Shown here in pieces: positions 2,166 through 63,705 of a stretch of DNA of 64,000 nt (the stretch's first letter is position 1; every line of letters starts with the position of its first letter). The translations under genes were made by a program, and so were the position numbers. Source of the stretch: Stomorhina lunata (taxonomy: Eukaryota; Arthropoda; Insecta; Diptera; Rhiniidae); assembly GCA_933228675.1 (NCBI GenBank), contig OW121743.1:49820422-49884421 (forward strand), in the 5' to 3' direction. The notes under the pieces are model-generated. The model did not search any database. It saw only the letters and a list, made by a program, of their open reading frames with translations, and was not told where the DNA came from.

Positions 2166-2596
2166 TTATTTAAGCGGAAGGTTGCGTCTAATGAATTTTG
2201 TCGAAGATGGACCGATTATAATAAATTGTAGAATAAATACAAAAAAAAAAATAAAATTTGTGCCTTTAAGAAAACCAAAATCTTTATTCGGGATAGTCAG
2301 TCCTCTCGTATTTGCCCGAAATAATGGACTCTCAGTTTTAATTCCAAAAGTCCCAGTATCAATAAAAAAAATGTCTGTGGTAAATTCATTTCATCAGCTC
2401 ATTTGGAGACCAAGCTGATCTTGAATCCAAATGGTTCAACTTCGTGATTACTAGTGAGTCTGATAACCTGAGTCATATTATCACATCATAGTGATAATTT
2501 TTTTTCGAATATGGACCTATTGTAATAAAACTTGACTTTAAATAAAAAAATGTAAAAAGGTTTATCAAAATTTTGGGACATCAAACATTTAATTTA

Positions 2597-2728
2597 AAAG
2601 TTTTACTGATGAGATGGCCTAACCAACCATAGAGACGCGTCGACTAAAGGTTTTCCTACCAACATTAATAATAATAAATAATTGTAATAAATTGGGATCT
2701 TAGTGCAATACACTACAGTAAAACTTTT
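2597..2728 (+). repeat. Hammerhead-bearing repeat, copy F1 (ribozyme core mutated)
   Basis: CTGATGA at 2606-2612, a potential stem II, then AGAGAC and GCGTC correspond base for base to the intact ribozyme at 60384-60446. However, the invariant GAAA has become GAGA, and the closing base of stem II and stem I are lost, so self-cleavage should be dead. The downstream body (AATTGTAATAAATTGGGAT through CACTACAGTAAAACTTTTT) matches copy F3. The left flank, AAAAGTTTTACTG, is the reverse complement of the element's own right end, which suggests an inverted or fold-back rearrangement. Confidence 0.65.
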
Positions 2729-4289
2729 TAAAGAAATGTAAAATCTGTTGCTTTAAGAGACCAAAATTTCAAGTCTTAGTTCTGAGAGTCCCGATATAAA
2801 AATATTCTGTGTGATAAATTTCAGATGTTTCATAAAAAACACCTTTTCTAAACGTACCCATCTTGCCTTAGCGAAGAGCACTAACTCTAGACCAAAGACT
2901 CTATAATTGGGTATGTGATGGAAATCGATAGTTTTCAGATACATTTTTGAGTAAATTTTTCCCATTTCCACAAAAAATTCATGCCAAATAAAAGATAAGA
3001 TATCAGTCTAAAGGATTAAGGCACAAATTTATATTTTTTTGGGAAAACAACCGAAAAATATCTAAAAGATATATCAGATATCGATCGATTTGAAAACAAT
3101 CAATTTCTAACACACCGGAATATTGCACACATTGATTTGTAGTATGGTCGATTTAAAAAGTCCCATAAAAAGGAGAGTATACCGCTTTTACTATAATTCG
3201 GAAACAACTAATGGATAGAAATAGCCAATGAAAGAAAGTTAAGGCACACACACGTGCAACTTGACTATATACAATAGCACGTACATTGAATAATACAAAG
3301 CATTCTTTTCACCACCTTTTGCTTCTCTACTATCCCTTTTTCCAGAAGGTAACCCAATTCGTATATACTCTTTATACAATTGTATAGGCAGTATTTGCTT
3401 GAGTGTTACTTCTCTTAAAAAAAATATATATACCTAAATTATTATCATCAGTACCGCCTAAAGCGGTAAGACTCGTCGTCAGTTTCACTTTTCGTCTACA
3501 ATGTTTTCCGTCATACATTTATAGATTAGTGACCAGTTTTTTTAATAATTATATTTCATACTAATCGTTAGCAATATCAATATTTTCTTCCTAGAAGTTA
3601 ATTAAATAATATTTTATTTTTGATTTTTCACTTAAAATTTTTCAGTGAAAAAATTCTTTTCATATGAAAAAATTTTGACAGTTGGTTGCACTGTTTCACA
3701 AAACAAGAATCACAATTGTTATGAAACGATGAAAAAATCTCGTTTCGTTTCAGTGATTTTTTCATATGATAATGATTTTACGTTTATTTTCATTTTTTTA
3801 CTAAAATAGAATCGCACTTCTATGAAAACATGAAAAAACTTTTCATTTCATCGTTTCATAGAATCAGAATTGACCCCCTGGTATGGTTTTACATTAATAA
3901 GTTGTTAAATCGTGAGCCTATATTCAATACCGTCTATGAACCATTTTTATTTTGAAAGATTTTTTATTGGAAAACTGTTCTTTTATAAAAGAACATCTCA
4001 CGTAATAAAAATCAGATGGAAGAAATCTGTTAAGGCAGTTATTTTTTTTGGCTTCTCCTTAAAATTTTATTATTTGTTTCATAGTCGGTGTTGAATATAG
4101 GCTCACGAAATGCTTTTCGTTTAGCTAAATATTTAGTTAGGATAAACATGCTGATAGTAATAGGACAGGTTCACATATTTTGTTAGGGGTTCTTAATGTA
4201 TCTACCGTATATAAAGTCTGGACATTGGTGCAATCATAATATGCTTGTACCTCCGAATCTTTTTGATTGTAGATATAAAGAAGGGGATG

Positions 4290-16235: not shown

Positions 16236-18048
16236 CAGAGGTTCGAAAGGCTCAATTCCTAATTCCATATTTTAAAATCAAATTTATTTTAGTGTTTATA
16301 TCATTCCCATAATACATTCACCTGAATCAAGTCATAAGCCTTAACTTTTAAGAATTAATTCTTAGGGAATTTAAAATCAGTTAGATTTAATTTAAATTAT
16401 TTCAATTCTTAATCTTATACAAAAATAATTAAAAATTTTATAAACAAATCATTTTGTAAAGGCATACAAAAATAAATGTATTCAAACGAACCCTACAGTT
16501 CCAAAATATATAATACCTATAAAAGAGCGGAATAAAATAAATCTCAACGAAACAAGTTCTTAACCATAAAATAAGTTTCAGAATTGCATTAGGGATTAAA
16601 TATCATTTAATACCCATGAAAAAAAGTCCCCATTTTAGAGGATAAAGAAATGACTCTTTCTTAAGTTATTGGGTTAAAAAAGGGTTTTTAAGCTGAGATG
16701 ATTTCCATCTCGATTTTAACAAAACCGTGGACTTGGTTTGTCTAAAAAACATGTATGAAAAGTCATATGATTAAAATGTGATTTATTCATTATCGACATA
16801 CATACATATGTATATATACATTTTCTAATTGTACTGAATTTTGTAATTGTATTCTAATTCCATCATAATTGTGTATGTATCTCAGCTATGTAATATATCT
16901 TCCTGCTAAGGGACTGATGTTTTTTAGACCTGTAGGGCATATACAAATAACATTTTTGTGGAAAAATTCAAAAATTTATTAAGTTGACTTAGGCGAAATT
17001 TAAAAAAATAAAAAAATTTTTTGTTATTGGTCATAAGATCAGAAAAACTATTTAAAATAAAATATAGATACACATAAAACTAAAGATTTTTTGTACACAT
17101 AATCTATAATATCATCCAGATTCGAAAACATATAAAATCCATTATTTCGCAGCAACAGAACAAAACCAGAGATAATATATTCTTACATATTACCACATTT
17201 TACATGTATATGTATGTATTTACTAAAACTAATGTCACAAAAAACAAATTATTTTTATAAATTTTTTTTAGAAAAAATTTTTAATTAAGCAGATTCCTTC
17301 ACTGATTGAATTTCTGGTAAAGATTAGGTCATTATAAAGGAAGGACCATTAATATTACTATATTCCTGCATATCTAAATATCTTTTAAAAGTTATAGTTT
17401 AACAAATAAATGCAAAATATACACAAGTTTGCGGTGAAATAGCCACATTAGGGTAGTTCCGTTTTTTTGAGCGAACATTAAAGAATACATGCATACTTTT
17501 ATTAAATGTGTATGCTTTCTGATAAAACATAAGAATATTTTAATAGGTTATGATAAATTTTGTTCTATTTTATATCTAGGGTTTTTACAAACAATGTATA
17601 TCGCACTTGATCCAATAATACCCTATAAATTAAAACTTCAATTTTCGTTTTTTGGTTTGATACACTTTTATTCAATGAGTGGTATAGTTTAAAAAACTTT
17701 TCCCTCGAAAAAGTCAGAATTTAAGTTTTTGATTTAAAATCAAGTATCTTTAGTTTATATCCACCCTAATGATTTGCACAAAATGAATTACCAAAAAATA
17801 TTTTAATTCAATTTGGACTGGTTTTAATTAAGAATAAAAAATGTTAATTCAAATTGGAGTAGAGGAATGAAGAAACATTTTATTCATTCAAGTTGATTTT
17901 AAATTCCCATGTGAATCAATTCACTAAGAATTAAAAATCAACACATTTTTTTTAATTGTTTTATGGGAATTAAACTTAAGGTATTGTTAAATCATTTTTG
18001 AATTCCTAGGAATTAAGCTAATATTTAATTAAGCCTTTCGAAGCTCTG
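16236..18048 (+). mobile_element. hAT-type non-autonomous element, family E copy E1
   Basis: The TIRs CAGAGGTTCGAAAGGCT and, inverted, CAGAGCTTCGAAAGGCT bound a 1813-bp element. A perfect 8-bp duplication GTCGATGT stands on both sides (16228-16235 and 18049-18056), as expected for the hAT superfamily. No transposase is encoded; a 67-codon ORF near 17489-17692 is shared with E3 but shows no domain. E2 and E3 are close relatives. Confidence 0.9.
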
Positions 18049-24229: not shown

Positions 24230-27200
24230 TTCTTTAGATAAAAATATTTTTCTGAAGAAAAATTTTCAATAAAAAATTTTTGGGACATCAAACATTTAAT
24301 TAAAAAGTTTTACTGTAGTGTATTGCAGTAATATCCCAATTTATTACAATTATTATTGTAATAAATAGTTTTTTTGATAAAACCAAAAAAATGTTGGTGG
24401 CGATTCTACAGAAAAATTTTTGATTCAAACATTTTTGTAAAAAATTTTCCTATAGAAAAATTAAAAAAAAAAATATTTTTTTATAGAAAAAATTTCGACA
24501 AAAATATTTTTCTACAGAAACATTTTCGACAAAAATATTTTTCTATAGAAAAAAATTTGACAATAATATTTTCTGTAGAAACATTTGGAAAAAAAAATTA
24601 TTTTCAATAGAAAAATTTTCTACAAAAATATTTTTCTATAGAAAAATTCTCGACAAAAATATTTTTCTATAGAAAAATTTTTGACAAAAATATTTTTCTA
24701 TAGAAAAATTCTCGACAAAAATATTTTTCTATAGAAAAATTTTCGACAAAAATATTTTTCTAAAGAAAAATTTTCGACAAAAATATTTTTCTATAGAAAA
24801 ATTTTCGACAAAAACATTTTTCTATAGAAAAATTTTCGACAAAAAAATTTTTCTACAGAAAAATTTTCGACAAAAGTATTTTTCTATAGAAAAATTTTTG
24901 ACAAAAAAAATTTTTCTATAGAAAAATTTTCGACAAAAATAATTTTCTATAGAAAAATTTTCGACAAAAAAATTTTTTTATAGAAAAATTTTCGACAAAA
25001 ATATTTTTCTATAGAAAAATTTTCGACAAAAATATTGTTCTGTAGAAAAATTTTCGACAAAAATATTTTTCTATAGAAAAATTTTCGACAAAAATATTTT
25101 TCTATAGAAAAATTTTCGACAAAAATATTTTTCTATAGAAAAATTTTCGACAAAAATATTTTTCTATAGAAAAATTTTCGACAAAAATAATTTTCTATAG
25201 AAAATTATTCGACAAAAATATTTTTCTATAGAAAATTATTCGACAAAAATATTTTTCTATAGAAAAATTTTCGACAAAAATATTTTTTTCTATAGAAAAA
25301 TTTTCGACAAAACATTTTTCTATAGAAAAATTTTCGACAAAAAAAATTTTTCTACAGAAAAATTTTCGACAGAAAAAATTTTTCAAAAAAAATTTTCGAC
25401 AAAAAAAATGTTTCTATAGAAAAATTTTCGACAAAAAAAATGTTTCTATAGAATAATTTTCGACAAAAAAAATTTTTCTATAGAAAAATTTTCGATAAAA
25501 ACATTTTTCTATAGAAATATTTTCGACAAAAAAATTTTTCTATAGAATAATTTTCGACAAAAAAAATTTTCTGTAGAATAATTTTCGACAAAAAAAAATT
25601 TTCTATAGAAAAATTTTCGACACAAAAAATTTTTCTATAGAAAAATTTTGGAAAAAAATATTTTTCTATAGAAAAATTTTTGACAAAAATATTTTTCTAT
25701 AGAAAAATTTTCGACAAAAATATTTTTCTATAGAAAAATTTTCCACAAAAATATTGTTCTGTAGAAAAATTTTCGACAAAAATATTTTTCTATAGAAAAA
25801 TTTTCGACAAAAATATTTTCTATAGAAAAATTTTCGACAAAAATATTTTTCTATAGAAAAATTTTCGACAAAAATATTTTCTATAGAAAAATTTTCGACA
25901 AAAACATTTTTCTATAGAAAAATTTTCGACAAAAAAAATTTTTCTACAGAAAAATTTTCGACAGAAAAAATTTTTCAAAAAAAATTTTCGACAAAAAAAA
26001 TGTTTCTATAGAAAAATTTTCGACAAAAAAAATGTTTCTATAGAATAATTTTCGACAAAAAAAATTTTTCTATAGAAAAATTTTCGATAAAAACATTTTT
26101 CTATAGAAATATTTTCGACAAAAAAATTTTTCTATAGAATAATTTTCGACAAAAAAAAATTTTCTGTAGAATAATTTTCGACAAAAAAAAATTTTCTATA
26201 GAAAAATTTTCGACACAAAAAATTTTTCTATAGAAAAATTTTGGAAAAAAATATTTTTCTATAGAAAAATTTTTGACAAAAATATTTTTCTATAGAAAAA
26301 TTTTCGACAAAAATATTTTTCTATAGAAAAATTTTCCACAAAAATATTGTTCTGTAGAAAAATTTTCGACAAAAATATTTTTCTATAGAAAAATTTTCGA
26401 CAAAAATATTTTCTATAGAAAAATTTTCGACAAAAATATTTTTCTATAGAAAAATTTTCGACAAAAATATTTTTCTATAGAAAAATTTTCGACAAAATTA
26501 TTTTTCTATAGAAAAATTTTCGACAAAAATAATTTTCTATAGAAAATTATTCGACAAAAATATTTTTCTATAGAAAATTATTCGACAAAAATATTTTTCT
26601 ATAGAAAAATTTTCGACAAAAACATTTTTCTATAGAAAAATTTTCGACAAAAAAATTTTTCTACAGAAAAATTTTCGACAAAAGTATTTTTCTATAGAAA
26701 AATTTTTGACAAAAAAAATTTTTCTATAGAAAAATTTTCGACAAAAATAATTTTCTATAGAAAAATTTTCGACAAAAAAATTTTTTTATAGAAAAATTTT
26801 CGACAAAAATATTTTTCTATAGAAAAATTTTCGACAAAAATATTGTTCTGTAGAAAAATTTTCGACAAAAATATTTTTCTATAGAAAAATTTTCGACAAA
26901 AATATTTTTCTATAGAAAAATTTTCGACAAAAATATTTTTCTATAGAAAAATTTTCGACAAAAATATTTTTCTATAGAAAAATTTTCGACAAAAATAATT
27001 TTCTATAGAAAATTATTCGACAAAAATATTTTTCTATAGAAAATTATTCGACAAAAATATTTTTCTATAGAAAAATTTTCGACAAAAATATTTTTTTCTA
27101 TAGAAAAATTTTCGACAAAAACATTTTTCTATAGAAAAATTTTCGACAAAAAAAATTTTTCTACAGAAAAATTTTCGACAGAAAAAATTTTTCAAAAAAA

Positions 27201-38380: not shown

Positions 38381-39899
38381 TATTGTATCTTTGTGTACCC
38401 ATCATTATTTCCGACTTAGTTACATACATATATAATTCCAAAGAAATTCCAATTGGAACAAGGAGTACTTCTCTCAGGCAATGAGCTAATTCCGATTCTA
38501 TATCGAACTTAAGACCTCTGATATGCTAGGCAGAAGACTAACCTGCTATATCTCGGCGGTTCACTTCCGACTTAGTTTAGTACATTAAAATAATTAACTT
38601 TTGTGTTTGTGTAAGTTCAGTACAATATAACAAGATACTGTTTTCTCGAACCTTGGTAAATATCTATTGAAGTACATCGTTCCAGATTTGACCCACAAGC
38701 TATGCGATCTTAAAAACGCTTTTCGGTTTTAAATTTGATATAATTAAAGAATATCTTTATTTGTGATTTGTTACAAACCAAATGAAAAACTTTATATACA
38801 TACCTCAAATCATTTATGATGGTGGATTCTAGAACACGCTAAAGATCTAACTAAAACACTAACATCTCTATAGCCACTATATCAATAAAAACTTTTGTTA
38901 AAACAAATAACAATAACGAACTACTTGTACTTTTTCTTAACTAAATACTAATCAAACGCATGCAAAAGCATATTTCCAGCGAAAAACTTTTAATGGCATT
39001 TAAATGTTGAAAAGAAAACTAAAACTCAAGAATAAAAAAGTTTTTTAAGACTTTTTTTTTCTTGCTTCTGGAAATATTGCCACGTTCAACATACAATACA
39101 ATTTGTTTTACATTAATAGACATTCATGCAACCTTTTCTTACAATTTCGTCATTTTTTTTTTATTTTTTTTTATTTCTACTTTTTTCCTTTTTTACTACT
39201 TACAAAGTTGTTGATGTTGCAAGTTTTGTTGCATAAGTAAGTTTTTCGCAGTTTTGTAAGAACAGAAATAAAATATTTTATTTAAAGAGAAAAAATTGGG
39301 AATTATATACTGGCAGATTTCTTCTTAATATTTTTAGTATAATCTACAAAATAAAATGGCAAATATCAAGCACGAAACATGGAAAAAAGTTAAGAATTAT
39401 TTTTGTATATATATATATTTTTTTGCAATTCAAATAAAATGTGTAAGTGATTGTTATATGCGTGTTAACATTGGCAATAATTCAAATGGAAATGTTAAGA
39501 ACAAAATATTGATTTTCGCTCAAATTGTATATGCGGGAAGTGGAAGTGTATTAAGTTTTGTTAAACTTTTACCTTGTCAGCTGACCTTATGTTGGGATTG
39601 GAAATAAATATAAATTCCATATAAGATAGACAGAAATGCTGAATTGTGAAAGGTATATCATTATCTTGTTAATAATGTTGCATGATAAAAAAAGTTGTTG
39701 CAAAATGTTTTTCTATGTTTCGTTCTTGAACGCACGTAAAGCAGTTAAGCTCCAAAACTCGTTAATTAAATAATTGGCAAGAATTCATGTTTTAATCTAG
39801 AAAGGATTTCCGTTTTTAGAGGCTCACGCACTAAATGAACGCAAAAATCAATTTAAACATTTCACGGGTTTCTTTCGCTCTAACCCATTTTCCTATAGC
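38381..39899. other. AT-rich DNA, no gene seen
   Basis: No supported coding region was found. A tRNA-like stretch lies at 38475-38575. An 83-codon ORF at 39356-39607 has no recognisable motif and is not called. Confidence 0.45.
38475..38575 (-). repeat. Possible tRNA-derived SINE head (weak)
   Basis: Read on the minus strand, ATAGCAGGTTAGTCTTCTGC and, about 30 bases later, AAGTTCGATA resemble pol III A and B boxes. No cloverleaf forms. The CTGCCTAGCA phrase is shared with the tRNA-like sequence at 52566-52632. Confidence 0.33.
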
Positions 39900-41545
39900 A
39901 AAATAATTCTAACGAAAATTATTCTATAGAAAAAAAGTTCTAACGAAAAATTTTCGATCGAAAAATAATTCTAACTTAAATTTTTCTAAAGAAAAATAAT
40001 TTTAACGAAAATTTTTCTGTGGGAAAATATTTCTAAAGAAAATTTTTCTATAGATAAATATTTCTAAAGAATATGTTTCTATAGGAAAATATTTCTAAAG
40101 AAAATTTTTCTATAGAAAAATACATATAAAAAAATTTTTCTATAGAAAAATATTTCTAAAGAAAATTTTTCTATAGAAAAATATTTTTAAACGAAAATTT
40201 TTCTATAGAAAAATATTTCTAAACGAAAATTTTTCTATAGAAAAATATTTCTAAACGAAAATTTTTCTATAGAAAAATATTTCTAAACGAAAATTTTTCT
40301 CTAGAAAAATATTTCTAAACGAAAATTTTTCTATAGAAAAATATTTCTAAACGAAAATTTTTCTATAAAAAAATATTTCTAAACGAAAATTTTTCTATAG
40401 AAAAATATTTCTAAACGAAAATTTTTCTATAGAAAAATATTTCCAAACGAAAATTTTTCTATAGAAAAATATTTCTAAACGAAAATTTTTCTATAGAAAA
40501 ATATTTCTAAACGAAAATTTTTCTCTAGAAAAATATTTCTAAACGAAAATTTTTCTATAGAAAAATATTTCTAAACGAAAATTTTTCTATAGAAAAATAT
40601 TTCCAAACGAAAATTTTTCTATAGAAAAATATTTCTAAACGAAAATTTTTCTATAGAAAAATATTTCTAAACGAAAATTTTTCTATAGAAAAATATTTCT
40701 AAACGAAAATTTTTCTATAGAAAAATATTTCTAAACGAAAATTTTTCTATAGAAAAATATTTCTAAACGAAAATTTTTCTATAGAAAAATATTTCTAAAC
40801 GAAAATTTTTCTATAGAAAAATATTTCTAAACGAAAATTTTTCTATAGAAAAATATTTCTAAACGAAAATTTTTCTATAGAAAAATATTTCTAAACGAAA
40901 ATTTTTCTATAGAAAAATATTTCTAAACGAAAATTTTTCTATAGAAAAATATTTCTAAACGAAAATTTTTCTATAGAAAAATATTTCTAAACGAAAATTT
41001 TTCTATAGAAAAATATTTCTAAACGAAAATTTTTCTATAGAAAAATATTTCTAACCGAAAATTTTTCTATAGAAAAATATTTCTAACCGAAAATTTTTCT
41101 ATAGAAAAATATTTCTAACCGAAAATTTTTCTATAGAAAAATATTTCTAACCGAAAATTTTTCTATAGAAAAATATTTCTAACCGAAAATTTTTCTATAG
41201 AAAAATATTTCTAACCGAAAATTTTTCTATAGAAAAATATTTCTAACCGAAAATTTTTCTATAGAAAAATATTTCTAACCGAAAATTTTTCTATAGAAAA
41301 ATATTTCTAACCGAAAATTTTTCTATAGAAAAATATTTCTAACCGAAAATTTTTCTATAGAAAAATATTTCTAACCGAAAATTTTTCTATAGAAAAATAT
41401 TTCTAACCGAAAATTTTTCTATAGAAAAATATTTCTAAACGAAAATTTTTAAGAAAAATATTTTTTACCGAAATTTTTTCTATAGAAAAATATTTCCATC
41501 GAAAATGTTCAACAGAAAAGTATTTTTAACAAAAATTTTTCTTAA
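39900..41545 (-). repeat. 32-bp minisatellite, related to the 31-bp array but inverted
   Basis: The unit is AAAAATATTTCTAAACG plus AAAATTTTTCTATAG, 32 bp, about 49 copies, very uniform between 40190 and 41420. The reverse complement shares CTATAGAAAAATTTTCG and AATATTTTT with the 24230-31035 unit and differs only in a 5-6-base middle. The last ~12 units (about 41050-41410) have CTAACCG in place of CTAAACG, which points to block-wise homogenisation. Rare variants (CTCTAG, TTCCAAACG) recur at lags of 224 and 160 bp, that is 7 and 5 units. Confidence 0.97.
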
Positions 41546-45779: not shown

Positions 45780-48640
45780 TCTAAATACTAAAAGATTTTC
45801 GTTAGAAATATTTTTCTAGAGAAAATTTTTTTTTAGAAATCTTTTTCTATAGAAAAATTTTCGTTTGGAAATATTTTTCTATAGAAAAATTTTCGTTTGG
45901 AAATATTTTTCTATAGAAAAATTTTCGTTTGGAAATATTTTTCTATAGAAAAATTTTCGTTTGGAAATATTTTCGGTTAGAAATATTTTTCTATAGAAAA
46001 ATTTTCTTTAGCATTTTCTCTGGAATTTTTTCTAAAGAAAAATTTTCTTTGGAGAGTTAATAATTCGAACTTTAGTACTAATTTAAAAATTAGGTTTATT
46101 CTTTGGAAAATTTTTTCTTTAGAAACATTTTCTTTAGAAATATTTTTCTGTAAAAAAATTTTCATTAGAAATATTTTTCTTTAGAAAGATTTTTTTTAGA
46201 ATTTTTTTTACAGAAAAATTTTCTTTAGAATTTTTCTTTCTAAAGACACAATTTTTGGTTAGAAATATTTTTCCATAGAAAAATTTATCTTACTATTTTT
46301 TTTTTCTATGGAATAATTTTCTTTAGAATTTTTTTTCTGTCGAAAAATTTTCTTTCTCTATAGAAAAATTTCCGTTCAAATTTTTTTTCTTTAGAAAAAT
46401 TTTCTTTATTAATATTATTCTACCGAAAAATATTCTTTAAAAATTTTTTTCTAAAGAAAAACTTTCTTTAGATTTTTTTTCTATAGATAAATTTTGTTTA
46501 GAAAATTTCTTTTTTAAATTTTTTTTCTAAAGAAAAATTTTCGATATAATTTTTTTTCTATAGAAAAATTGTCTTTGGAATTTTTTTTCTATTGAAAAAT
46601 TTTCTTTAAATTTTTTTTTTCACAGAAAAAATTTCGTTACAATTTTTTTTCTATAGAAAAATTTTCTTAAGAATTTTTTTCTATAGAAAAATTTTCTTTA
46701 GAATTTTCTTTTCTATAGAAAAATTTTCTTTAAAATTTTGCTATTTTTTTTTTAAATTTTTATTCCTATAGTAAAATTTTCTTTAGATTTTTTTATAGAA
46801 ATTTTTTTTTATAAAGAAAAATTTTCTGTATAAAAATTTCGTCAGAAATATTTTTCTATATAAAAATTTCTTTAGAAGTATTTTTCTATAGAAAAAATTT
46901 CATTCGAAATATTCTTCTATAAAAAAAATTTCTTTAGAAATATTTTTCTATTGAAAAAATTTCTTTAGAAATATTTTCTATAGAAAAATTTTCTTTAGAT
47001 TTTTTGTCTATAAAATAACTTTCTTAAGAATATTTTCTATAGAAAAGTTTTCTTTAGAATTTTTTTTCAAAAGAACAATTTTCTTTGGATTTTTTTTGCT
47101 ATAAAAAATTTTCTTTAGAATTTTTTTTCTATAGAGAAAAATTTCTCTTTAAAAAAATTTTCTTTAGAAATAATATTTTCTTTAAAAAATTTTTCTTTAT
47201 AAATAATTTTTTAAAGAAAAATTTTCTTTAAAAATATTTTTCTATAGAAAAATTTACTTTAAATATATTTTTCTGTAGAAAAATTTCTTCAGAATTTTTT
47301 TTCTAAAAAAAAATTTTCTTTAGAAGTATTTTTCTATAGAAAGATTTTCTTTCGAAATATTTTTCTATTAAAAAAATTTTCTTTAGAAATATTTTTCCGT
47401 AGAAAAATTTTGTTTAGAAGTATTTTTGTAAAGAAAAATATTTTTTTCTATGGAATTTTCTTTTCTTAGAAAAATTTTTTTCAGAATTTTTTTTATAGAA
47501 AAATTTTCTTTAGAATTTTTTTTCTATAGACAAATTTTTTTTAGAATTTTTATTCCTATAGTACAATTTTCTTTAGATTTTTTTTATCTAGAATTTTTTT
47601 CTAAAGAAAAATTTTCTGTATAAAAATTTCCTTAGAAATATTTTTCTATATAAAGATTTCTTTAGAAGTATTTTTCTATAGAAAAATTTTCATTCGAAAT
47701 ATTTTTCTATGAAAAAATTTTCTTTAGAAATATTTCTCTATAGAAAATTTTTCTTTAGAAATATTTTTCTATTGAAAAAATTTCCTTAGAAATATTTTCT
47801 ATAGAAAAATTTTCTTTCGATTTTTTGTCTATAGAAAAATTTTCTTAAGAATATATTTCTATAGAAAAGTTTTCTGTAGATTGTTTTTTGCAAAAGAACA
47901 ATTTTCTTTGGATTTTTTTTTGCTATAAAAAATTTTCTTTCGAATTTTGTTTCTATAGAGAAAAAATTTTCTTTGAAATTATTTTTCTATAAAAATATTT
48001 TCTTTAGAAATAATTTTTTAAAGAATAATTTTCTTTAAAAATATTTTTCTATAGAAAAATTTGCTTTAGAAATATTTTTCTGTAGAAAATTTTCGGTTAG
48101 AATTTTGTTTCTAAAGAAAAATTTTCGTTAGAAGTATTTTTCTATAGAAAAATTTTCTTTCGAAATATTTTTCTATAGAAAAATTTTCGGGAATTAATTA
48201 TTCGAACTTTAGAATTAATTGAAAAATTAGGTTTCATCAGGCTTGAGTTCATTTGATTTTCAAATTATTAATTTTGAAAATTGGAAAGTAAATTATGGAG
48301 AAAATTTTCTTTAAAATTTTTTTTCTATAGAGCAATTTTCTTTAGAATTATTTTTCTATAGAAGAATTATGTTTAGAAGTATTTTTGTAAAAAAAAATAT
48401 TTTTTTCTATGGAAATTTTTTTTTGAAATTTTCTTTTCTTAGAAAAATTTTTTTCAGAATTTTTTTTTAAAGAAAAATTTTCTTTAGGATTTGTTTTGAT
48501 AGAAAAATTTTCTTTAGAATTTTTTTCTCAACAAAAGAATTTTATAATCTTTTTTCTATAGAAAAATTTTCTTTAGAATTTATTTCTTTAAAAAAATATT
48601 TCTTAAGATATATTTTTCTATAGAAATATTTTTCTGCTTT
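45780..48640 (+). repeat. Diverged array of the CTATAG-palindrome repeat
   Basis: About 90 degenerate units of ~30-32 bp have cores such as TTTTTCTATAGAAAAATTTT followed by CTTTAGAAAT or CGTTTGGAAATA. It is in the same orientation as the 24230 array and opposite to 39900-41545. Larger duplications are visible: 46750-47140 resembles 47555-47960, and a non-repeat stretch (ATTCGAACTTTAG...AAAATTAGGTTT) appears near 46060 and 48200. Much more decayed than the other two arrays. Confidence 0.92.
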
Positions 48641-49025: not shown

Positions 49026-49295
49026 ATGAAGCGAATAACAAATCAACCAAGAAAAATTATAGCAGCAACAACTGAAAGTGGAAAATTTAAGAAAACAGAA
49101 AAATTAAATGAAAACACTAAAGCAGACATTAAAAATATTGCCTACTTTAAGGGAAAAACATTTACTACTACTAGTACAAGGAGAAACAGCAGTTGTAGAA
49201 GACCAATTACTAGTCATAGAGCTACACTGGCCAAAACTGTCAACGTGACTGATGTGAGCATAGAGGCAAAGTTTAAGGCTCCAAGGAAAACATGA
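49026..49295 (+). promoter_or_regulatory. Upstream ORF overlapping the kekkon start (ATGA)
   Basis: An 89-codon ORF starts at ATG 49026 and stops at TGA 49293-49295, overlapping the kekkon ATG (49292-49294) by the sequence ATGA. It is rich in Lys, Thr and Asn and has no recognisable domain. It could limit or couple translation of the main ORF; it could equally be incidental. Another short ORF begins at the exon start, at ATG 48843. Confidence 0.4.
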
Positions 49296-51349
49296 AAAAC
49301 AAGAGCAATAAAATACATCTCAAACAACAGCAGCAGCAACAAGAACATTTTATAACGAAACAATTTGAAAGCATAAGAAGAAAAAAGAAAAGAAAATTCT
49401 TGATTCAAGAAACGCAAGATTGTCAACAGCAGCAGAACCAACTAGAGCAGCAGCATCACCATCATCCCTATCTGTATCCCAAGACTAGAAGAATTTTTGT
49501 CAAGCGTAAGGACCGAAGATTACAGCGCAGACAGTCTTTAAAATTATTAAGATTTGTACAGTTTTTACCAGTTCTAAGAAATAGTTCAACATTTTTGTTG
49601 TTAAGTCAGTTGCTGCTTTTTACTTTTCTGTGCAACATGCCCTCACAAGTCTCGGCCGATTGGCTGATGGACTGCGGTGACTGTCACTGTAAATGGAATT
49701 CCGGCAAGAAGACAGCAGATTGTAAAAATTTAACTTTAAGCTCGGTACCCGAAAATCTCAGTAATGAGGTTCAGGTTTTGGACTTGTCCCTTAACCGAAT
49801 TGTCTATTTAGAGGAGAATACCTTCTTGAATGCTGACCTCACAAATCTCCATAAATTGTATATACGCAATAGTACTTTGCAGCATATAGATCCTCGTAGC
49901 TTTACCCAATTGGAGATTTTAATCGAACTGGATTTGTCCAATAACCTCTTGCACATCCTCCAAGCCAATGTCTTTGCCCGTTTGGTTAAGGTTAGAGCCA
50001 TTGTTCTGAATGGTAATAAGCTGGAGAACTTAAACGATGGTATATTCCAAAATCTGAAATATCTCCACAAGGTGGAACTAAAAGACAATCGTTTAACGAA
50101 AATAGCCACTCAAGTGTTTGTCAATGTGCCACTGCTTTCCCAGATCTATTTGAACAACAACCGTTTGAATTTTTTACGCAAGGAGAGTTTTGAGTCTGTT
50201 AAACGTTTGACCGCTTTATCTTTGGATGGTAATCCCTGGAATTGCACCTGTGAACTGCAAATCTTTCGGGACTTTGTGCTGAGACGTAATCTTTATACCC
50301 CGCCCACCTCTTGCTACTATCCCAGCTCTCTTAGAGGTCTTCTTTGGATAGAAGATCAACCGGAGGCCTTTGCCTGCAAGCCACGTATAATATTTCCTGC
50401 CAAAGGTGCTTCCATTACAACATCCAAAGAGAATGTGACCCTGGTCTGTCGAGTTCATGCCTCGGCTAATACTCATATCTCCTGGGATTATGGCACTAAA
50501 TCCGTATACAAACCAGGCACTGGACAGCTAGCGCCTCCCCCTCAACAACAGCTACAGCAGAGGATACACATACAAATCGTGGAAGATGAAATGACCAAAG
50601 AAAAAGAATTCGGCCGTAATGTCTACATATCACGTTTAACCATCTTGGGAGCTGAAAAGTCTGATGAGGGCACCTACACATGCCTAGCAGAAAATGCTGG
50701 TGGTAAAGATAGCGTACAAATGTCTCTGCTCATACAAAAGGCAGGTGCACGCGATATGCTGCAAGGTAATCTGGCAGCTGTTATCTCCCTCATGGCCTTG
50801 GGTCTCCTAAGTGTCTCTGTATTCCTGGCCATGGTTACCTGCTGTATATACAAACGTTTTATAGCCTCTGCCTCGGCACATCAACATCGTCATCATCATT
50901 TGGATTTAAGTGGCAATGATCCCCTAACCGCTCATGGCACTGTTGTGGCAAATCATGGCACAACCACAGTCACCGGCAACACTGATGTTATGTTGGGTGT
51001 TGTCGATGATACGCTGAAATACAAAAAGCACCATCATCATCTGCAACAGACTTCGATAAATGGTGGTACAACTTTGATTAAGGATAAATATAGTGAACTA
51101 ATAAAACATAATGGTGGTGGTGGTGGCATGGGTGGCGTGGGAATTGGCAGTGCTGATAGCATAGGTTCTGGCAATTCACCTTTAATGGAACAGGATGGCA
51201 ACAGTGGTAGTGGCGGTGGTGGTGGAGGTGGTAATGGTGGTCTTATGGGTGGCAAAATGAACTGTGATGTACAACAACTGGGTCATATGGAGAAGAAATA
51301 TTACGAGCAGAGTAATGATGGTAAGTCAAATGTGAACAGAAAAGTTTAA
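49292..51349 (+). CDS. kek2: Kekkon-family LRR/Ig transmembrane protein (probably kek2), likely continuing in a further exon
   Basis: Single-pass neuronal/epithelial surface receptor of the insect kekkon family; Drosophila Kek1 restrains EGFR signalling, other members act at synapses. Residues 1-97 are basic and Q/H-rich; 98-122 form the signal segment (cut likely after VSA, before DWLMDC). LRR N-cap cysteines are 128, 131, 133 and 144. About six or seven LRRs span 155-313, then the LRR C-cap (C318, C320, C341, C362). An Ig C2 domain covers about 363-483 (C386, W398, DEGTYTC with C464). The transmembrane helix is 495-519; the tail is His-rich and then Gly-rich (607-655). An in-frame TAA at 49274-49276 makes this ATG the first. 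A donor, ATG|GTAAGT at 51320/51321 (phase 1, codon 677), suggests the stop at 51349 lies in intron. The kek2 assignment rests on my memory of the DCG-C-C-W N-cap and LRR pattern; family placement is firm, the paralog is not. Confidence 0.9.
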   Translation: MKNKSNKIHLKQQQQQQEHFITKQFESIRRKKKRKFLIQETQDCQQQQNQLEQQHHHHPYLYPKTRRIFVKRKDRRLQRRQSLKLLRFVQFLPVLRNSSTFLLLSQLLLFTFLCNMPSQVSADWLMDCGDCHCKWNSGKKTADCKNLTLSSVPENLSNEVQVLDLSLNRIVYLEENTFLNADLTNLHKLYIRNSTLQHIDPRSFTQLEILIELDLSNNLLHILQANVFARLVKVRAIVLNGNKLENLNDGIFQNLKYLHKVELKDNRLTKIATQVFVNVPLLSQIYLNNNRLNFLRKESFESVKRLTALSLDGNPWNCTCELQIFRDFVLRRNLYTPPTSCYYPSSLRGLLWIEDQPEAFACKPRIIFPAKGASITTSKENVTLVCRVHASANTHISWDYGTKSVYKPGTGQLAPPPQQQLQQRIHIQIVEDEMTKEKEFGRNVYISRLTILGAEKSDEGTYTCLAENAGGKDSVQMSLLIQKAGARDMLQGNLAAVISLMALGLLSVSVFLAMVTCCIYKRFIASASAHQHRHHHLDLSGNDPLTAHGTVVANHGTTTVTGNTDVMLGVVDDTLKYKKHHHHLQQTSINGGTTLIKDKYSELIKHNGGGGGMGGVGIGSADSIGSGNSPLMEQDGNSGSGGGGGGGNGGLMGGKMNCDVQQLGHMEKKYYEQSNDGKSNVNRKV
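51321..51326 (+). other. Candidate 5' splice site in the kekkon tail
   Basis: GTAAGT after AATGATG is a near-consensus donor 26 bases before the stop codon of the ORF. Kekkon proteins with 800-900 residues are usual, longer than the 685 read here, which fits continuation downstream. No obvious second coding exon was recognised in the window. Confidence 0.5.
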
Positions 51350-53998: not shown

Positions 53999-54513
53999 AA
54001 ATACAATGAATTCTTAAACTCAGAATATTATGTAAGTAAAATTAACTTAAAATGTAATTTGAAATGAATGAATATTCATTTAAAAACCGGTCAACTGATT
54101 TTTCATTCAAATTCAATAAATATTTCATTTAAATTTAACTGACAAATATTTAAACTACATGTTCAGTTTTAAAAAAGGAATATTCAGTTGTTTTCAAAAA
54201 AATTACTGACAAAAATTTAAACTACATTTTTAGCAGTGTGGCCATTTTAGCATTTTTGGAGCTAGATTTAGCATAATTTATTTTTTTTAGCTCCAAAATT
54301 TTCGTTTTGCATTTAGCATAATTTTAGCATTTTTTCAAAATATTTTTAGCATTTTTGGCATTTTTTAATCTAACAAAATTCTGTTCTTTTTATTTTAAAT
54401 TAAATGTTTCTTTTTTGGAAAAATATAAATAAACCCATAAAATGTGATTAAAACAGCTTAATTCTCATGAATGTTCTAGCCAGAAATCAACGGTCGAATT
54501 CAGGATCGATGCA

Positions 54514-54783
54514 TTGGAGTATAAGAATGCTTTGAATGAAATACTATTTAAAAATTTCACCTCTTATGTAATGAATTTTCTTCTTTTGCCATTTAGTAAT
54601 GCTGAGGTTGAAAGAGTTTTTTGTGGAAAGAACCTATTAAAAACTAAAGTTAGAAATCGTATGGGTTTAACTACAATGAATTCTATTCTTTATATAAGAT
54701 GCGTGCTAAAAATGTTAAACAAATGCTGCAGAACTTTTGAAATTTGCTCAGAATTACTAAGAAAATACGACGGAAATATTTAA
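54514..54783 (+). pseudogene. hAT transposase C-terminal dimerisation region, remnant
   Basis: The 89-codon frame holds FLLLPFSNAEVERVF, then KTKVRNRMGLTTMNSILYIR. This is the conserved hAT C-terminal dimerisation pattern (P-x-S-x-A-x-x-E-R-x-F, then K-x-R-N-R-M). The catalytic domain and zinc finger are missing, so this is a fragment of the transposase that belonged to the surrounding element. Confidence 0.85.
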
Positions 54784-57221: not shown

Positions 57222-58492
57222 TATCGACATACATACATATGTATATTTACATTTTCTAATTGTACTGAATTTTGTAATTTTATTCTAATTTCATCATAAT
57301 TTTGTTTCTAATTAGAATAAATCAGCTATGTAATATATCTTCCTGCTAAGGGACTAATGTTTTTTAGACCTGTAGGGCATATACAAATAACATTTTTGTG
57401 GAAAAATTCAAAAGTTTATTAAGTTGACTTAGGCGAAATTTAAAAAAAATAAAAAAATTCTTTGTTATTGGTCATAAGATCAGAAAAACTATTTAAAATA
57501 AAATATAGATACACATAAAACTAAAGATTTTTTGTACACATAATCTATAATATCATCCAGATTCGAAAACATATAAAATCCATTATTTCGCAGCAACACA
57601 ACAAAACCAGAGATAATATACTCTTACATATTAGCACATTTTACATGTATATGTATGTATTTACAAAAACTAATGTCACAAAAAACAAATTATTTTTATA
57701 AATTTTTTTAGAAAAAATGTTTAATTAAGCAGATTCCTTCACTGATTGAATTTCTGGTAAAGATTAGGTCATTATAAACGAAGGACCATTAATAAAATAT
57801 TACTATATTCCTGCATATCTAAATATCTTTTAAAAGTTATAGTTTAACAAATAAATGCAAAATATACACAAGTTTGCGGTAAAATAGCCACATTAGGGTA
57901 GTTCCGTTTTTTTGAACGAACATTAAAGAATACATGCATACTTTTATTAAATATGTATGCTTTCTGATAAAACATAAGAATATTTTAATAGGTTATGATA
58001 AATTTTGTTCTATTTTATATCTAGGGTTTTTACAAACAATGCATATCGCACTGATATAATAATACCCTTTAAATTAAAATTTCAATTTTCGTTTTTTGGT
58101 TTGATATACTTTTATTCAATGAGTGGAATAGTTTAAAAAACTTTTCCCTCGAAAAAGTCAGAATTTAAGTTTTTGATTTAAAATCAAGTAACTTTAGTTT
58201 ATATCCACCCTAATGATTTGCACAAAATGAATTACCAAAAAATATTTTAATTCAATTTGGACTGGTTTTAATTAAGAATAAAAAATGTTAATTCAAATTG
58301 GAGTAGAGGAATGAAGAAACATTTTATTCATTCAAGTTGATTTTAAATTCCCATGTGAATCAATTCACTATGAATTAAAAATCAACACATTTTTTTTAAT
58401 TGTTTTATGGGAATTAAACTTAAGGTATTGTTAAATCATTTTTGAATTCCTAGGAATTAAGCTAATATTTAATTAAGCCTTTCGAAGCTCTG
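57222..58492 (+). mobile_element. hAT-type family E copy E2 (5' truncated)
   Basis: It matches E1 from about 16796 to its right end, CTTTCGAAGCTCTG. The left third is missing at the C4 junction, and no 8-bp duplication can be seen. It differs from E1 by scattered substitutions. Confidence 0.85.
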
Positions 58493-59445: not shown

Positions 59446-60231
59446 TTCTTTCCCAGAGGTTCGAAAGGCTCAATTCCTAATTCCATATTTTAAAATCAAA
59501 TTTATTTTAGTGTTTATATCATTCCCATAATACATTCACCTGAATCAAGTCATAAGCCTTAACTTTTAAGAATTAATTCTTAGGGAATTTAAAATCAGTT
59601 AGATTTAATTTAAATTATTTCAATTCTTAATCTTATACAAAAATAATTAAAAATTTTATAAACAAATCATTTTGTAAAGGCATACAAAAATAAATGTATT
59701 CAAACGAACCCTACAGTTCCAAAATATATAATACCTATAAATGAGCGGAATAAAATAAATCTCAACAAAACAAGTCCTTAACCATAAAATAAGTTTCAGG
59801 ATTGCATTAGGGATTAAATATCATTTAATACCCATGAAAAAAAGCCCCCATTTTAGAGGATAAAGAAATGACTCTTTCTTAAGTTATTGGGTTAAAAAAG
59901 GGTTTTTAAGCTGAGATGATTTCCATCTCGATTTTAACAAAACCGTGGACTTGGTTTGTCTAAAAAATATGTATGAAAACTCATATGATTAAAATGTGAT
60001 TTATTCATTATCGACATATATACATATGTATATATGCATTTTCTAATTGTACTGAATTTTGTAATTTTATTCTAATTCCATCATAATTGTGTATGTATCT
60101 CAGCTATGTAATATATCTTCCTGCTAAGGGACTGATGTTTTTTAGAGACTGCAGGGCATATACAAATAACATTTTTGTAGAAAAATTCAAAAATTTATTA
60201 AGTTGACTTAGGCGAAATTTAAAAAAATAAA

Positions 60232-60547
60232 GAAATGATAAAACTGAAAAATGTTTGTGTGTTTCTGTTCGGATGATAATCTTCGCTTTATGTTGATATT
60301 TGTTGGACACAATAACAATAATTCGTATTTATTCAGTCCCTCAGATTAAACATAATGTGAGGTTTTCGCTCTGTCTAGAATTAGGGATAATCCTCCTGAT
60401 GAGATGGTCTAACCAACCATCGAAACGCGTCGAGGAAAGGTTTCCCCACCAACATTTTTTGGTTTTATCAAAAAACTATTTATTGCAATAATAAATAATT
60501 GTAATAAATTGGGATTCTTAGTGCAATACACTACAGTAAAACTTTTT
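60232..60547 (+). mobile_element. 316-bp hammerhead-ribozyme-bearing insert F3
   Basis: This segment is absent at the same place in E1 (about 17009) and E2, and is inserted in an A-rich stretch (AATAAA|AAAATTC). It contains an intact hammerhead motif at 60384-60446 and ends in CACTACAGTAAAACTTTTT. It has no ORF, no poly(A) tail and no clear TIRs. Related pieces occur at 2597-2728 and 24303-24400. Hammerheads are known in Penelope-like elements and in small retrozyme-type repeats of animals; membership of either is inference. Confidence 0.78.
60384..60446 (+). ncRNA. Type-I hammerhead self-cleaving ribozyme
   Basis: All core elements are present in order. Stem I 5' strand is TCCTC (60391-60395), then the catalytic CTGATGA (60396-60402). 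Stem II is GATGGT/ACCATC (60403-60408 with 60416-60421) with a 7-base loop, followed by the invariant GAAA (60422-60425). Stem III is a very short CGCG (60426-60429), followed by the TC cleavage dinucleotide (60430-60431). Stem I 3' strand is GAGGA (60432-60436). GGGA (60384-60387) and TCCC (60443-60446) extend stem I past an internal loop, as in natural hammerheads that use loop-loop contacts. Cleavage is predicted after C60431. The minimal palindromic stem III is like that of hammerheads in retroelements, which often act better as dimers. Confidence 0.85.
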
Positions 60548-61594
60548 AAAAAAATTCTTTGTTATTGGTCATAAGATCAGAAAAACTATTTAAAATAAAA
60601 TATAGATACACATAAAACTAAAGATTTTTTTGTACACATAATCTATAATCTCATCCAGATTCGAAAACATATAAACTCCATTATTTCGCAGCAACACAAC
60701 AAAACCAGAGATAATATACTCTTACACATTAGCACATTTTACTTGTATATGTATGTATTTACAATAACTAATGTCACAAAAAACAAATTATTTTTATAAA
60801 TTTTTTTAGAAAAAATTTTTAATTTAGCAGATTCCTTCACTGATTGAATTTCTGGTAAAGATTAGGTCATTATAAACGAAAGACCATTAATATTACTATA
60901 TTCCTGCATATCTAAATATCTTTTAAAAGTTATAGTTTAACAAATAAATGCAAAATATACACAAGTTTGCGGTGAAATAGCCACATTAGGGTAGTACCGT
61001 TTTTTTGAACGAACATTAAAGAATACATGCATACTTTTATTAAATGTGTATGCTTTCTGATAAAACACAAGAATATTTTAATAGGTTATGATAAATTTTG
61101 TTCTATTTTATATCTAGGGTTTTTACAAAAAATGTATATCGCACTTGATCCAATAATACCCTATAAATTAAAACTTAAATTTTCGTTTTTTGGTTTGATA
61201 TACTTTTATTCAATGAGTGGTATAGTTTAAAAAACTTTTCCCTCGAAAAAGTCAGAATTAAAGTTTTTGATTTAAAATCAAGTATCTTTAGTTTATATCC
61301 ACCCTAATGCTTTGCACAAAATGAATTACCAAAAAATATTTTAATTCAATTTGGACTGGTTTTAATTAAGAATAAAAAATGTTAATTCAAATTGGAGTAG
61401 AGGAATGAAGAAACATTTTATTCATTCAAGTTGATTTTAAATTCCCATGTGAATCAATTCACTAAGAATTAAAAATCAACATATTTTTTTTAATTGTTTT
61501 ATGGGAATTAAACTTAAGGTATTGTTAAATCATTTTTGAATTCCTAGGAATTAAGCTAATATTTAATTAAGCCTTTCGAAGCTCTGTTCTTTCC

Positions 61595-62697: not shown

Positions 62698-63705
62698 GTG
62701 TTGCCAGATTTACACTTTTCTTAATATATTCGAACATTCTTCGCATAATAAAGCAAAAATTCGAATCTTTCCGCACTGACTTTACAAATACAATTTTACA
62801 GAAGTGTGAGCGGGACAAACATAGTTGAGTCTCGTACCAGGTACCTGTACGTGCTTTATATGAGAAACAGTCAACTGTAAGTGCATTACTAAAAGTTGTG
62901 TTGCCCGATTTACACTTTTCTTAATATATTCGAGCATTCTGCGCATAATAAAGCAAAAAATTCGAATCTTTCAGCACTGACCTTACAAATACAATTTTAC
63001 AGAAGTGCGAGCGGGACAAAGATAGATGAGTCTCGTACCTGGTACCTGTACGTGCTTCATATATGAGAAAGATTCAACTTTAAGTGCATTACTAAAAGTT
63101 GTGTTGCCAGATTTACACTTTTCTTAATATATTCGAGCATTCTGCGCATAATAAAGCAAAAAATTTGAATCTTTCAGCACTGACCTTACAAATACAATTT
63201 TACAGAAGTGCGAGCGGGACAAAGATAGATGAGTCTCGTACCTGGTACCTGTACGTGCTTCATATATGAGAAAGATTCAACTGTAAGTGCATTAGTAAAA
63301 GTTGTGTTGCCAGATTTACACTTTTCTTAATATTCGAGCATTCTTCATATAATAAAGCAAAAAATTCGAATCTTTCAGCACTGACTTTACAAATACAATT
63401 TTACAGAAGTGTGAGCGGGATAAACATAGTTGAGTCTCGTACCAGGTACCTGACGTGCTTCATATATGAGAAAGAGTCAACTGTAAGTGCATTAGTAAAA
63501 GTTGTGTTGCCAGATTTACACTTTTCTTAATATATTCGAGCATCCTGCACATAATAAAGCAAAAAATTCGAATCTTTCAGCACTGACTTTACAAATACAA
63601 TTTTACAGAAGTGTGAGCGGGACAAAGATAGTTGAGTCTCGTACCTGGTACATGTACGTGCTTTATATGGGAAAGAGTCAACTGTAAGTGCATTAGCAAA
63701 AGTTG
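62698..63705 (+). repeat. Five tandem copies of a ~202-bp unit
   Basis: Units start with GTGTTGCCAGATTTACACTT at about 62698, 62898, 63101, 63304 and 63504 and are 200-203 bp long. Each contains CTTTCAGCACTGAC, CAATTTTACAGAAGTG, GAGCGGGACAAA, GAGTCTCGTACC-GGTACCTGTACG (copy 4 lacks a base here) and AACTGTAAGTGCATTA. Units 2 and 3 are the most alike. No ORF spans a unit and I do not recognise the family. Confidence 0.92.

What the first reader, a model, noticed from the sequence alone, without database searches (positions are those of the whole stretch)
60384..60446. Complete hammerhead ribozyme in a fly genome insert
CTGATGA, a 6-bp stem II, GAAA, a minimal CGCG stem III, the TC cleavage site and a closing stem I (TCCTC/GAGGA plus GGGA/TCCC) are all present with correct order and pairing. 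Random occurrence of the conserved core together with two complementary stems is very unlikely. The hammerhead fold rules are established; activity here is inference.
Basis: partly seen in the sequence, partly recalled or inferred. Interest (0 to 1): 0.86.

Follow-up and report, generated by a model that had tools for sequence, protein, structure and literature searches.

The report
Hammerhead ribozyme in a Penelope-type retrozyme
This stretch of what is likely a fly genome holds a hammerhead-ribozyme motif inside a short non-coding repeat with over a thousand matching copies in the same genome; copies that were read carry insertion marks like those of Penelope-like jumping genes, which likely move it, and the RNA is predicted to cut itself mainly when two copies pair.

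Summary
Correction: ACGCGT is a loop-less palindrome, so stem III cannot form within one copy; the motif is predicted to act mainly as a dimer. Rfam does not report it.

It sits in a 488-bp non-coding unit. The strict core occurs at 1,170 places in the window's own 728-Mb genome (reversed-pattern control 0). In 53 elements taken in chromosome order, 60 of 68 3' ends fall at two sites about 40 bp apart; 15 of 53 are head-to-head inverted, 13 of these with one short and one long end, with shared edge words of about 10 bp. Published Penelope-like elements show this pattern. The genome also holds Penelope-type endonuclease genes (11 of 150 hits in open frames of 830 aa or more); 10 of 10 3' regions read carry a hammerhead-shaped motif with palindromic stem III, though found only after I widened the descriptor.

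I read it as a retrozyme likely moved in trans by Penelope-type proteins. Of 100 listed copies, one or two start at the cleavage site, so insertion templates span an uncut or rejoined junction. The window copy is a passenger in a hAT-like transposon. Cleavage, circles and trans-mobilisation are untested.

The parts
60384..60446 (+). hammerhead motif; predicted cleavage between 60431 and 60432
   Evidence: read; descriptor and chance rate; no Rfam hit
60425..60430 (+). ACGCGT palindrome in place of stem III (predicted to pair between two copies)
   Evidence: sequence; dimer energy evaluated at -39.7 kcal/mol, best two-strand fold -42.6
60225..60549 (+). retroelement copy A: unit positions u282-488 followed by u1-118, ending at the short 3' site
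   Evidence: BLAST of the 488-bp unit, 97.6% identity; 6 substitutions before the 3' end, none inside 60384-60446
59454..61586 (.). hAT-like transposon that carries copy A as a passenger; ends CAGAGGTTCGAAAGGC / GCCTTTCGAAGCTCTG; 8-bp duplication TTCTTTCC at 59446-59453 and 61587-61594
   Evidence: 14 other fetched loci carry it with the insert; superfamily rule recalled
16236..18048 (+). copy of the same transposon without the insert (empty site at 17009-17017)
57222..58492 (+). second, shorter copy of the transposon without the insert (empty site at 57450-57458)
2553..2739 (+). copy B: head-to-head, long 3' end on the left and short 3' end on the right; ribozyme decayed (GAGA instead of GAAA, stem I lost)
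24279..24403 (-). copy C: u12-139 only, inside a 31-bp satellite array

Best explanation
The motif is a minimal hammerhead with a loop-less palindromic stem III, carried by a 488-bp non-coding repeat unit whose genomic copies, where read, bear an insertion signature like that of Penelope-like elements; it is predicted to cut its RNA mainly as a dimer, and the unit is likely moved in trans by Penelope-type proteins encoded elsewhere in this genome. Shown: the sequence, the repeat family, tandem and head-to-head copies, two 3' ends about 40 bp apart with usually one of each at the two edges of an inverted copy, shared edge words of about 10 bp, and Penelope-type endonuclease genes with long open frames and hammerhead-shaped motifs of their own. 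Inferred, step by step: an RNA is transcribed from the unit, possibly starting near u282; two hammerheads in a multimer pair through ACGCGT and cut after C17; unit RNAs are rejoined, probably as circles, by a host ligase, while some stay uncut; the Penelope-type protein recognises the hairpin at u78-138, cuts AT-rich DNA with a stagger of about 10 bp, and primes one strand in the hairpin loop (about u118) and the other just past it (about u157), which yields head-to-head arrays. The window copy is one such insertion that was later multiplied as a passenger of a hAT-like transposon.
For: 1,170 strict-core places, reversed-pattern control 0. 488-bp tandem and head-to-head array with 12-bp shared edge word at L042. 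Of 68 element 3' ends in 53 elements, 27 lie at u118-131 and 33 at u156-166. 13 of 15 inverted copies have one short and one long end; 2 of 3 further inverted copies too, and window copy B. Shared edge words: inverted 10.2 bp against 7.0 re-paired, direct 8.0 against 6.7, 0 of 300 shuffles reach either. [quoted passage not shown] Penelope-type endonuclease: 150 scored hits, 11 rows in open frames of 830 aa or more; 10 of 10 3' regions read have a hammerhead-shaped motif with palindromic stem III and 8 of 10 a complete GACC..GGTC hairpin, 1 hit in 2 Mb of simulated sequence. Copies with an exact cleavage-site 5' end are rare: 1 clear and 1 possible of 100 listed. A circle of the unit folds far better than shuffles (z -5.6, n 40).
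Against: No Rfam hit and the single copy prefers another fold; even for two strands the hammerhead dimer (-39.7) is not the best fold (-42.6). The unit has no reverse-transcriptase frame and no convincing DNA match to the ten Penelope 3' regions, so its helper is not identified; a reverse-transcriptase domain was not checked in the Penelope hits. My first, stricter descriptor found 0 of 10 Penelope motifs; I widened it after reading the sequences (one extra base before stem II, C or T first, any letter at position 8), and all ten have the extra base that the unit lacks; one of ten has a broken core. 8 of 68 3' ends lie elsewhere; L088, L073 and L117 break the one-short-one-long rule. The cluster of 5' ends near u282 was noticed after the fact: 6 of 34 direct ends in 7 nt is reached by 7 of 5,000 uniform draws and by 107 of 5,000 draws restricted to u160-450. 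Units within one array are not always more alike than units of different arrays (L108 1.64%, L088 1.15% against a mean of 1.14%), so a circular template is not proven.
Confidence: 0.62

Rival explanations
1. The repeat is a pseudo-LTR fragment of one autonomous Penelope element of this genome, spread in cis as truncated or solo copies, not an independent non-coding family.
For: The unit has an 11-codon open stretch from u123 just where Penelope pseudo-LTRs hold the first codons; tandem and inverted arrays and end structure are Penelope-like.
Against: Unit arrays run unit to unit without a coding region in L042, L043, L096, L099, L104 and others; ten Penelope 3' regions show no convincing match to the unit. 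Only 10 of 150 hits were read, so a master copy may have been missed.
Confidence: 0.2
2. The unit is an ordinary animal retrozyme moved by a LINE, and the likeness to Penelope insertions is convergence (for example twin priming).
For: Head-to-head copies and duplications also arise by twin priming in LINEs (recalled); PMC7229834 leaves LINEs open as helpers (Discussion).
Against: Both edges of inverted copies are proper 3' ends, one short and one long in 13 of 15, which twin priming at internal positions does not predict; Penelope hits of this genome are themselves mostly head-to-head, 22 of 28 neighbouring pairs (from 102 of 150 rows).
Confidence: 0.12
3. The hammerhead shape is a decayed or chance likeness without ribozyme function.
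For: No Rfam hit; the competing fold is more stable in one copy; among copies with perfect u1-26, 310 of 1,415 lack the exact CGCGTC.
Against: About 0.01 such motifs expected per window; analogous motifs with other letters in 10 of 10 Penelope 3' regions of the same genome.
Confidence: 0.06

Closest known systems
Minimal type-I hammerheads of Penelope-like elements (Cervera and de la Pena 2014; Lunse et al. 2017; not held; known here as cited in PMC7761336, passages)
   Same: Canonical core, no real helix III, palindrome that could pair between two copies, tandem repeats
   Different: Carried by a 488-bp unit without a coding frame; stem III is the six-base palindrome ACGCGT, whereas the ten Penelope motifs read here have ATAT or ACGT and an extra base before stem II
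Metazoan non-LTR retrozymes (PMC7229834: abstract, part 1 of Results, passages, Discussion)
   Same: Non-coding low-GC unit (31.4%) with a type-I hammerhead, tandem copies, duplications longer than 4 bp; the single-pair stem III under a palindromic loop resembles that described for the axolotl
   Different: Unit of 488 bp is longer than the 150-450 bp quoted; head-to-head arrays and alternative short and long 3' ends are not mentioned in the parts that I read
Penelope-like elements with inverted pseudo-LTR and optional tail (PMC3846280, passages; PMC11167929, passages and part 1 of the main text)
   Same: Head-to-head structure, duplication of about 9-10 bp, tail at one end, hammerhead in the repeat, AT-rich targets
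   Different: No reverse transcriptase or endonuclease frame in the unit; tail of about 40 bp rather than 31 bp
Hammerhead of salamander retrozymes (HHR_Amex1, PMC7229834, passages)
   Same: One base pair of helix III capped by a palindromic tetraloop, better as a dimer
   Different: Different unit sequence and different insertion structure as far as read

Membership tests
Hammerhead ribozyme, type I | Conserved core CUGANGA, GAA, U-H at the cleavage site (rule recalled) | tested here: met
   60396-60402, 60422-60424, 60430-60431
Hammerhead ribozyme, type I | Three helices around the core in one molecule | tested here: not met
   Stems I and II pair; stem III is the loop-less palindrome ACGCGT
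Hammerhead ribozyme, type I | Covariance-model hit in Rfam | tested here: not met
   No hit at gathering; 15.6 bits for Hammerhead_3, cut-off 48.5
Hammerhead ribozyme, type I | Self-cleavage | not testable with these tools
   needs in vitro transcription
Penelope-type minimal hammerhead | Core present, helix III missing or palindromic, copies in tandem | tested here: met
   like motifs in 10 of 10 Penelope 3' regions with the widened descriptor, 0 of 10 with the first one
Penelope-like element | Head-to-head copies, target duplication of about 9 bp, tail at one end | tested here: met
   15 of 53 elements inverted, 13 of 15 with one short and one long end; edge words 10.2 against 7.0 bp
Penelope-like element | Single ORF with reverse transcriptase and GIY-YIG endonuclease | tested here: not met
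   Longest stop-free run in two tandem units 85 aa; hence 'works like', not an autonomous member
Metazoan non-LTR retrozyme | Non-coding low-GC unit with type-I hammerhead, in tandem | tested here: met
   31.4% GC; 10 of 53 elements hold two or more strict cores
Metazoan non-LTR retrozyme | Unit of about 150-450 bp | tested here: inconclusive
   488 bp; a related 185-bp unit at L130
Metazoan non-LTR retrozyme | Circular and linear unit RNAs in tissue | not testable with these tools
   no RNA data
hAT-like transposon (carrier) | Short terminal inverted repeats and 8-bp target duplication (rule recalled) | tested here: met
   TTCTTTCC around 59454-61586, GTCGATGT around 16236-18048

The most novel reading that the evidence does not exclude
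Animal retrozymes are ribozyme-bearing satellites of Penelope-like elements: one RNA hairpin offers two start points, one in its loop and one just past it, and the Penelope-type enzyme uses a different one for each DNA strand of the same cut, copying a circular or uncut hammerhead RNA into head-to-head arrays. This genome lets the proposed link between retrozymes and Penelope elements be read from over a thousand mostly young copies, and it shows the ribozyme family riding a DNA transposon as a second way of spreading.
Probability: 0.38. Interest if true: 0.75.

Novelty: new variant of a known kind. Interest (0 to 1): 0.58.

Why it matters
How animal retrozymes insert is open; PMC7229834 (Discussion) calls autonomous Penelope elements a strong candidate because both share hammerheads, tandem copies and occurrence in the same animals. 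Here the insertion footprints themselves bear on it: a non-coding hammerhead unit shows inverted ends, duplications of about 10 bp and a tail at one end, in a genome that also holds long Penelope-type frames. The one-short-one-long rule (13 of 15) is a testable statement about how the two DNA strands are primed.

Tried and rejected
Rfam at gathering and relaxed thresholds gave no hammerhead call. A pattern scan of viral contigs gave 33 places, none with a stem I of 3 bp or more; a scan of prokaryote genomes gave none. A first reading of copy A as having a clean 9-bp target duplication was dropped: AAATAAAGAAATG at its 5' edge also belongs to the unit, so the duplication cannot be measured there. 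A first reading of the flanks of copies B and C as a DNA transposon with terminal inverted repeats was dropped once L042 showed head-to-head arrays. Homogeneity of units within an array as proof of a circular template was not upheld. Stem-II changes are uninformative because the copies are young. C17 as a special mutation site was not supported by reading 20 copies. GIY-YIG by Pfam found only 2 hits, one of them the SLX1-like host gene; the Penelope-type protein query found 150. A baseline for the loss of the cleavage hexamer did not complete, so nothing is claimed about selection on it. One BLAST run with other scoring settings printed nothing and was replaced.

Full report
WHAT IS THERE. The stem-III letters ACGCGT are a palindrome without a loop, so one molecule can form only one pair over a CGCG loop. 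Evaluated energies: hammerhead fold of one copy -15.6, best fold -18.4 kcal/mol; two copies joined through stems I and III -39.7, best two-strand fold -42.6. The dimer is plausible but is not the computed optimum. The descriptor finds only this site in the window, and about 0.01 are expected per window. Rfam does not report it.

NESTED INSERTS. BLAST of the window on itself shows that the motif lies in an insert that two other copies of the surrounding repeat lack (16236-18048 and 57222-58492). The surrounding repeat, 59454-61586, has the inverted ends and 8-bp duplication of a hAT-like transposon, and 14 other fetched loci carry it with the insert (L034, L036, L038-L041, L045-L047, L049, L051, L052, L081, L084). 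The window holds two more copies of the insert: B at 2553-2739 (ribozyme decayed, head-to-head) and C at 24279-24403 (truncated).

THE FAMILY. The window lies in a 728-Mb assembly of 104 contigs. The strict pattern CTGATGA-N15-22-GAAACGCGTCGAG occurs 584+586 times, reversed control 0. At L042 the element is seen in full: on one side two whole and two partial 488-bp units inverted, on the other two whole units and a partial one direct, five strict cores, all segments identical, with AAATCGATTTAT at both edges. I number the unit of L042 from the predicted cleavage site (u1 = first base of GAGGA). The window copy is u282-488 followed by u1-118; it differs at six places before its 3' end, none inside the ribozyme.

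INSERTION SIGNATURE. I took the loci of the strict-core places in coordinate order on contig C1 up to 41.5 Mb: 52 loci, 53 elements, four of them the same hAT-borne insertion (L046, L076, L081, L084). 38 are direct and 15 head-to-head; 10 of 53 hold two or more strict cores. Of 68 3' ends, 27 lie at u118-131, 33 at u156-166 and 8 elsewhere (54, 84, 109, 112, three at 143, 149). In 13 of 15 inverted copies the two edges are one short and one long end; L088 and L073 are the exceptions. Of five further loci that I chose, three are inverted: L115 and L119 follow the rule, L117 does not. Shared edge words: inverted 10.2 bp against 7.0 when edges are re-paired, direct 8.0 against 6.7; 0 of 300 shuffles reach either; in this AT-rich genome single cases are weak. 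5' ends are scattered, but 11 of 65 independent ends lie at u279-285 where 0.93 are expected; the window was chosen after the fact, and for the 34 direct ends alone a cluster of 6 in 7 nt is reached by 7 of 5,000 uniform draws, or 107 of 5,000 if draws are confined to u160-450.

COMPARISON WITH PENELOPE ELEMENTS. [quoted passage not shown] The unit has an 11-codon open stretch from u123, and TTGGGA (u78) and TCCCAA (u133) could form a hairpin with the short end in its loop and the long end past it. PMC11167929 (passages and part 1 of the main text) reports cutting and extension of both DNA strands and internal start of reverse transcription at two adjacent sites. In this genome a Penelope-type GIY-YIG query (L063) has 150 scored hits of 200 candidates, 11 rows in open frames of 830-864 aa; a reverse-transcriptase domain was not checked. 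I read ten 3' regions, eight behind frames of 830-864 aa and two behind frames of 615 and 380 aa. A first descriptor like that used for the window found 0 of 10. Reading them by eye showed hammerhead shapes with one extra base before stem II; a descriptor widened for that base and for core changes finds 10 of 10 with palindromic stem III (ATAT in six, ACGT in four) and 1 in 2 Mb of simulated sequence. Core letters are canonical in five, TTGAAAA in four, CTGAATA in one. A complete GACC..GGTC hairpin follows in 8 of 10. Among the 102 of 150 hits whose positions I entered, 22 of 28 neighbouring pairs closer than 7 kb are head-to-head. The unit does not match these regions convincingly; the best hit, 64 bp at 80% in L120, lies beyond its hairpin. 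So I call the unit non-coding and leave its helper open.

WHAT THE RIBOZYME DOES. Copies with perfect u1-26 number 1,415; with CGCGTC in front, 1,105. Of the 100 places listed, 79 recur and 21 do not. I read 20 of these 21: 17 run on across the junction with changed letters, L139 runs on with a deletion, L140 starts exactly at u1, and L142 is a head-to-head junction whose direct arm may start there. So the RNA copied into DNA nearly always spans the junction: it was uncut, or cut and rejoined. Tandem arrays and the strongly folded circle fit rejoined circles; the u282 cluster fits uncut linear RNA. I favour a mixture, the ribozyme cutting multimers into units that a host ligase closes, as PMC7229834 reports for other animals (abstract, part 1 of Results, passages, Discussion). 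This is inference.

LITERATURE. Searches (open-licence library) listed no paper whose title or abstract start shows a hammerhead retrozyme family in flies; the two key papers on Penelope hammerheads are not held. I therefore do not claim that this family or the short/long rule is unpublished. PMC7229834 and PMC7761336 (passages) already propose that Penelope elements move animal retrozymes.

LIMITS. The sample of 53 requires an intact core, so cut-end copies were tested apart. All loci come from one assembly. Organism identity is inferred. No RNA or activity data were available.

Noticed in passing
L122, L123, L124, L128 (3' regions of Penelope-type elements): Four of ten hammerhead-shaped motifs read TTGAAAA where CTGANGA is expected: U3 and A8 in place of C3 and G8, a paired change of two core positions that contact each other in the active fold (recalled). 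Could be a natural variant core or shared decay.
   Followed up: partly
L130 (C1:9582300-9583800): A tandem array of about 185-bp units (spacings 180-185, seven anchor words) built from the same ribozyme region (core CTGAAGA or CTGAAAA) plus an inverted stretch complementary to the 3' half of the ribozyme, 16 bases perfect; it ends at the long 3' site. It resembles circles whose ribozyme is masked by a complementary stretch.
   Followed up: partly
unit u483-488 (CGCGTC) in the whole genome: 310 of 1,415 copies with perfect u1-26 lack the exact hexamer; changes seen in 17 of 20 copies read sit mostly at CpG positions. No baseline was obtained.
   Followed up: partly
unit u279-285: Cluster of cDNA 5' ends, possibly a transcription start; two arms (L042 direct, L087 inverted) begin at ACGCGTC|GAGG.
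   Followed up: partly
window 7806-9644 (+): Uninterrupted 612-aa DDE transposase ORF (PF13843), which I recognise as piggyBac-type.
   Followed up: no
window 54448-54780 (+): 111-aa open stretch that looks to me like the end of a hAT transposase (by eye).
   Followed up: no
window 24439-31033, 39887-41542, 45791-48188: Large AT-rich 31-32-bp tandem arrays with motifs like TTTTTCTATAGAAAAA; many retroelement copies lie in similar sequence.
   Followed up: no
window 62698-63705: Tandem array of a 203-bp unit, about five copies, 94% matches; the hammerhead descriptor has no hit there.
   Followed up: no
window 49292-51349 (+): 685-aa ORF with leucine-rich repeats and an Ig domain, kekkon-like by recall.
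   Followed up: no
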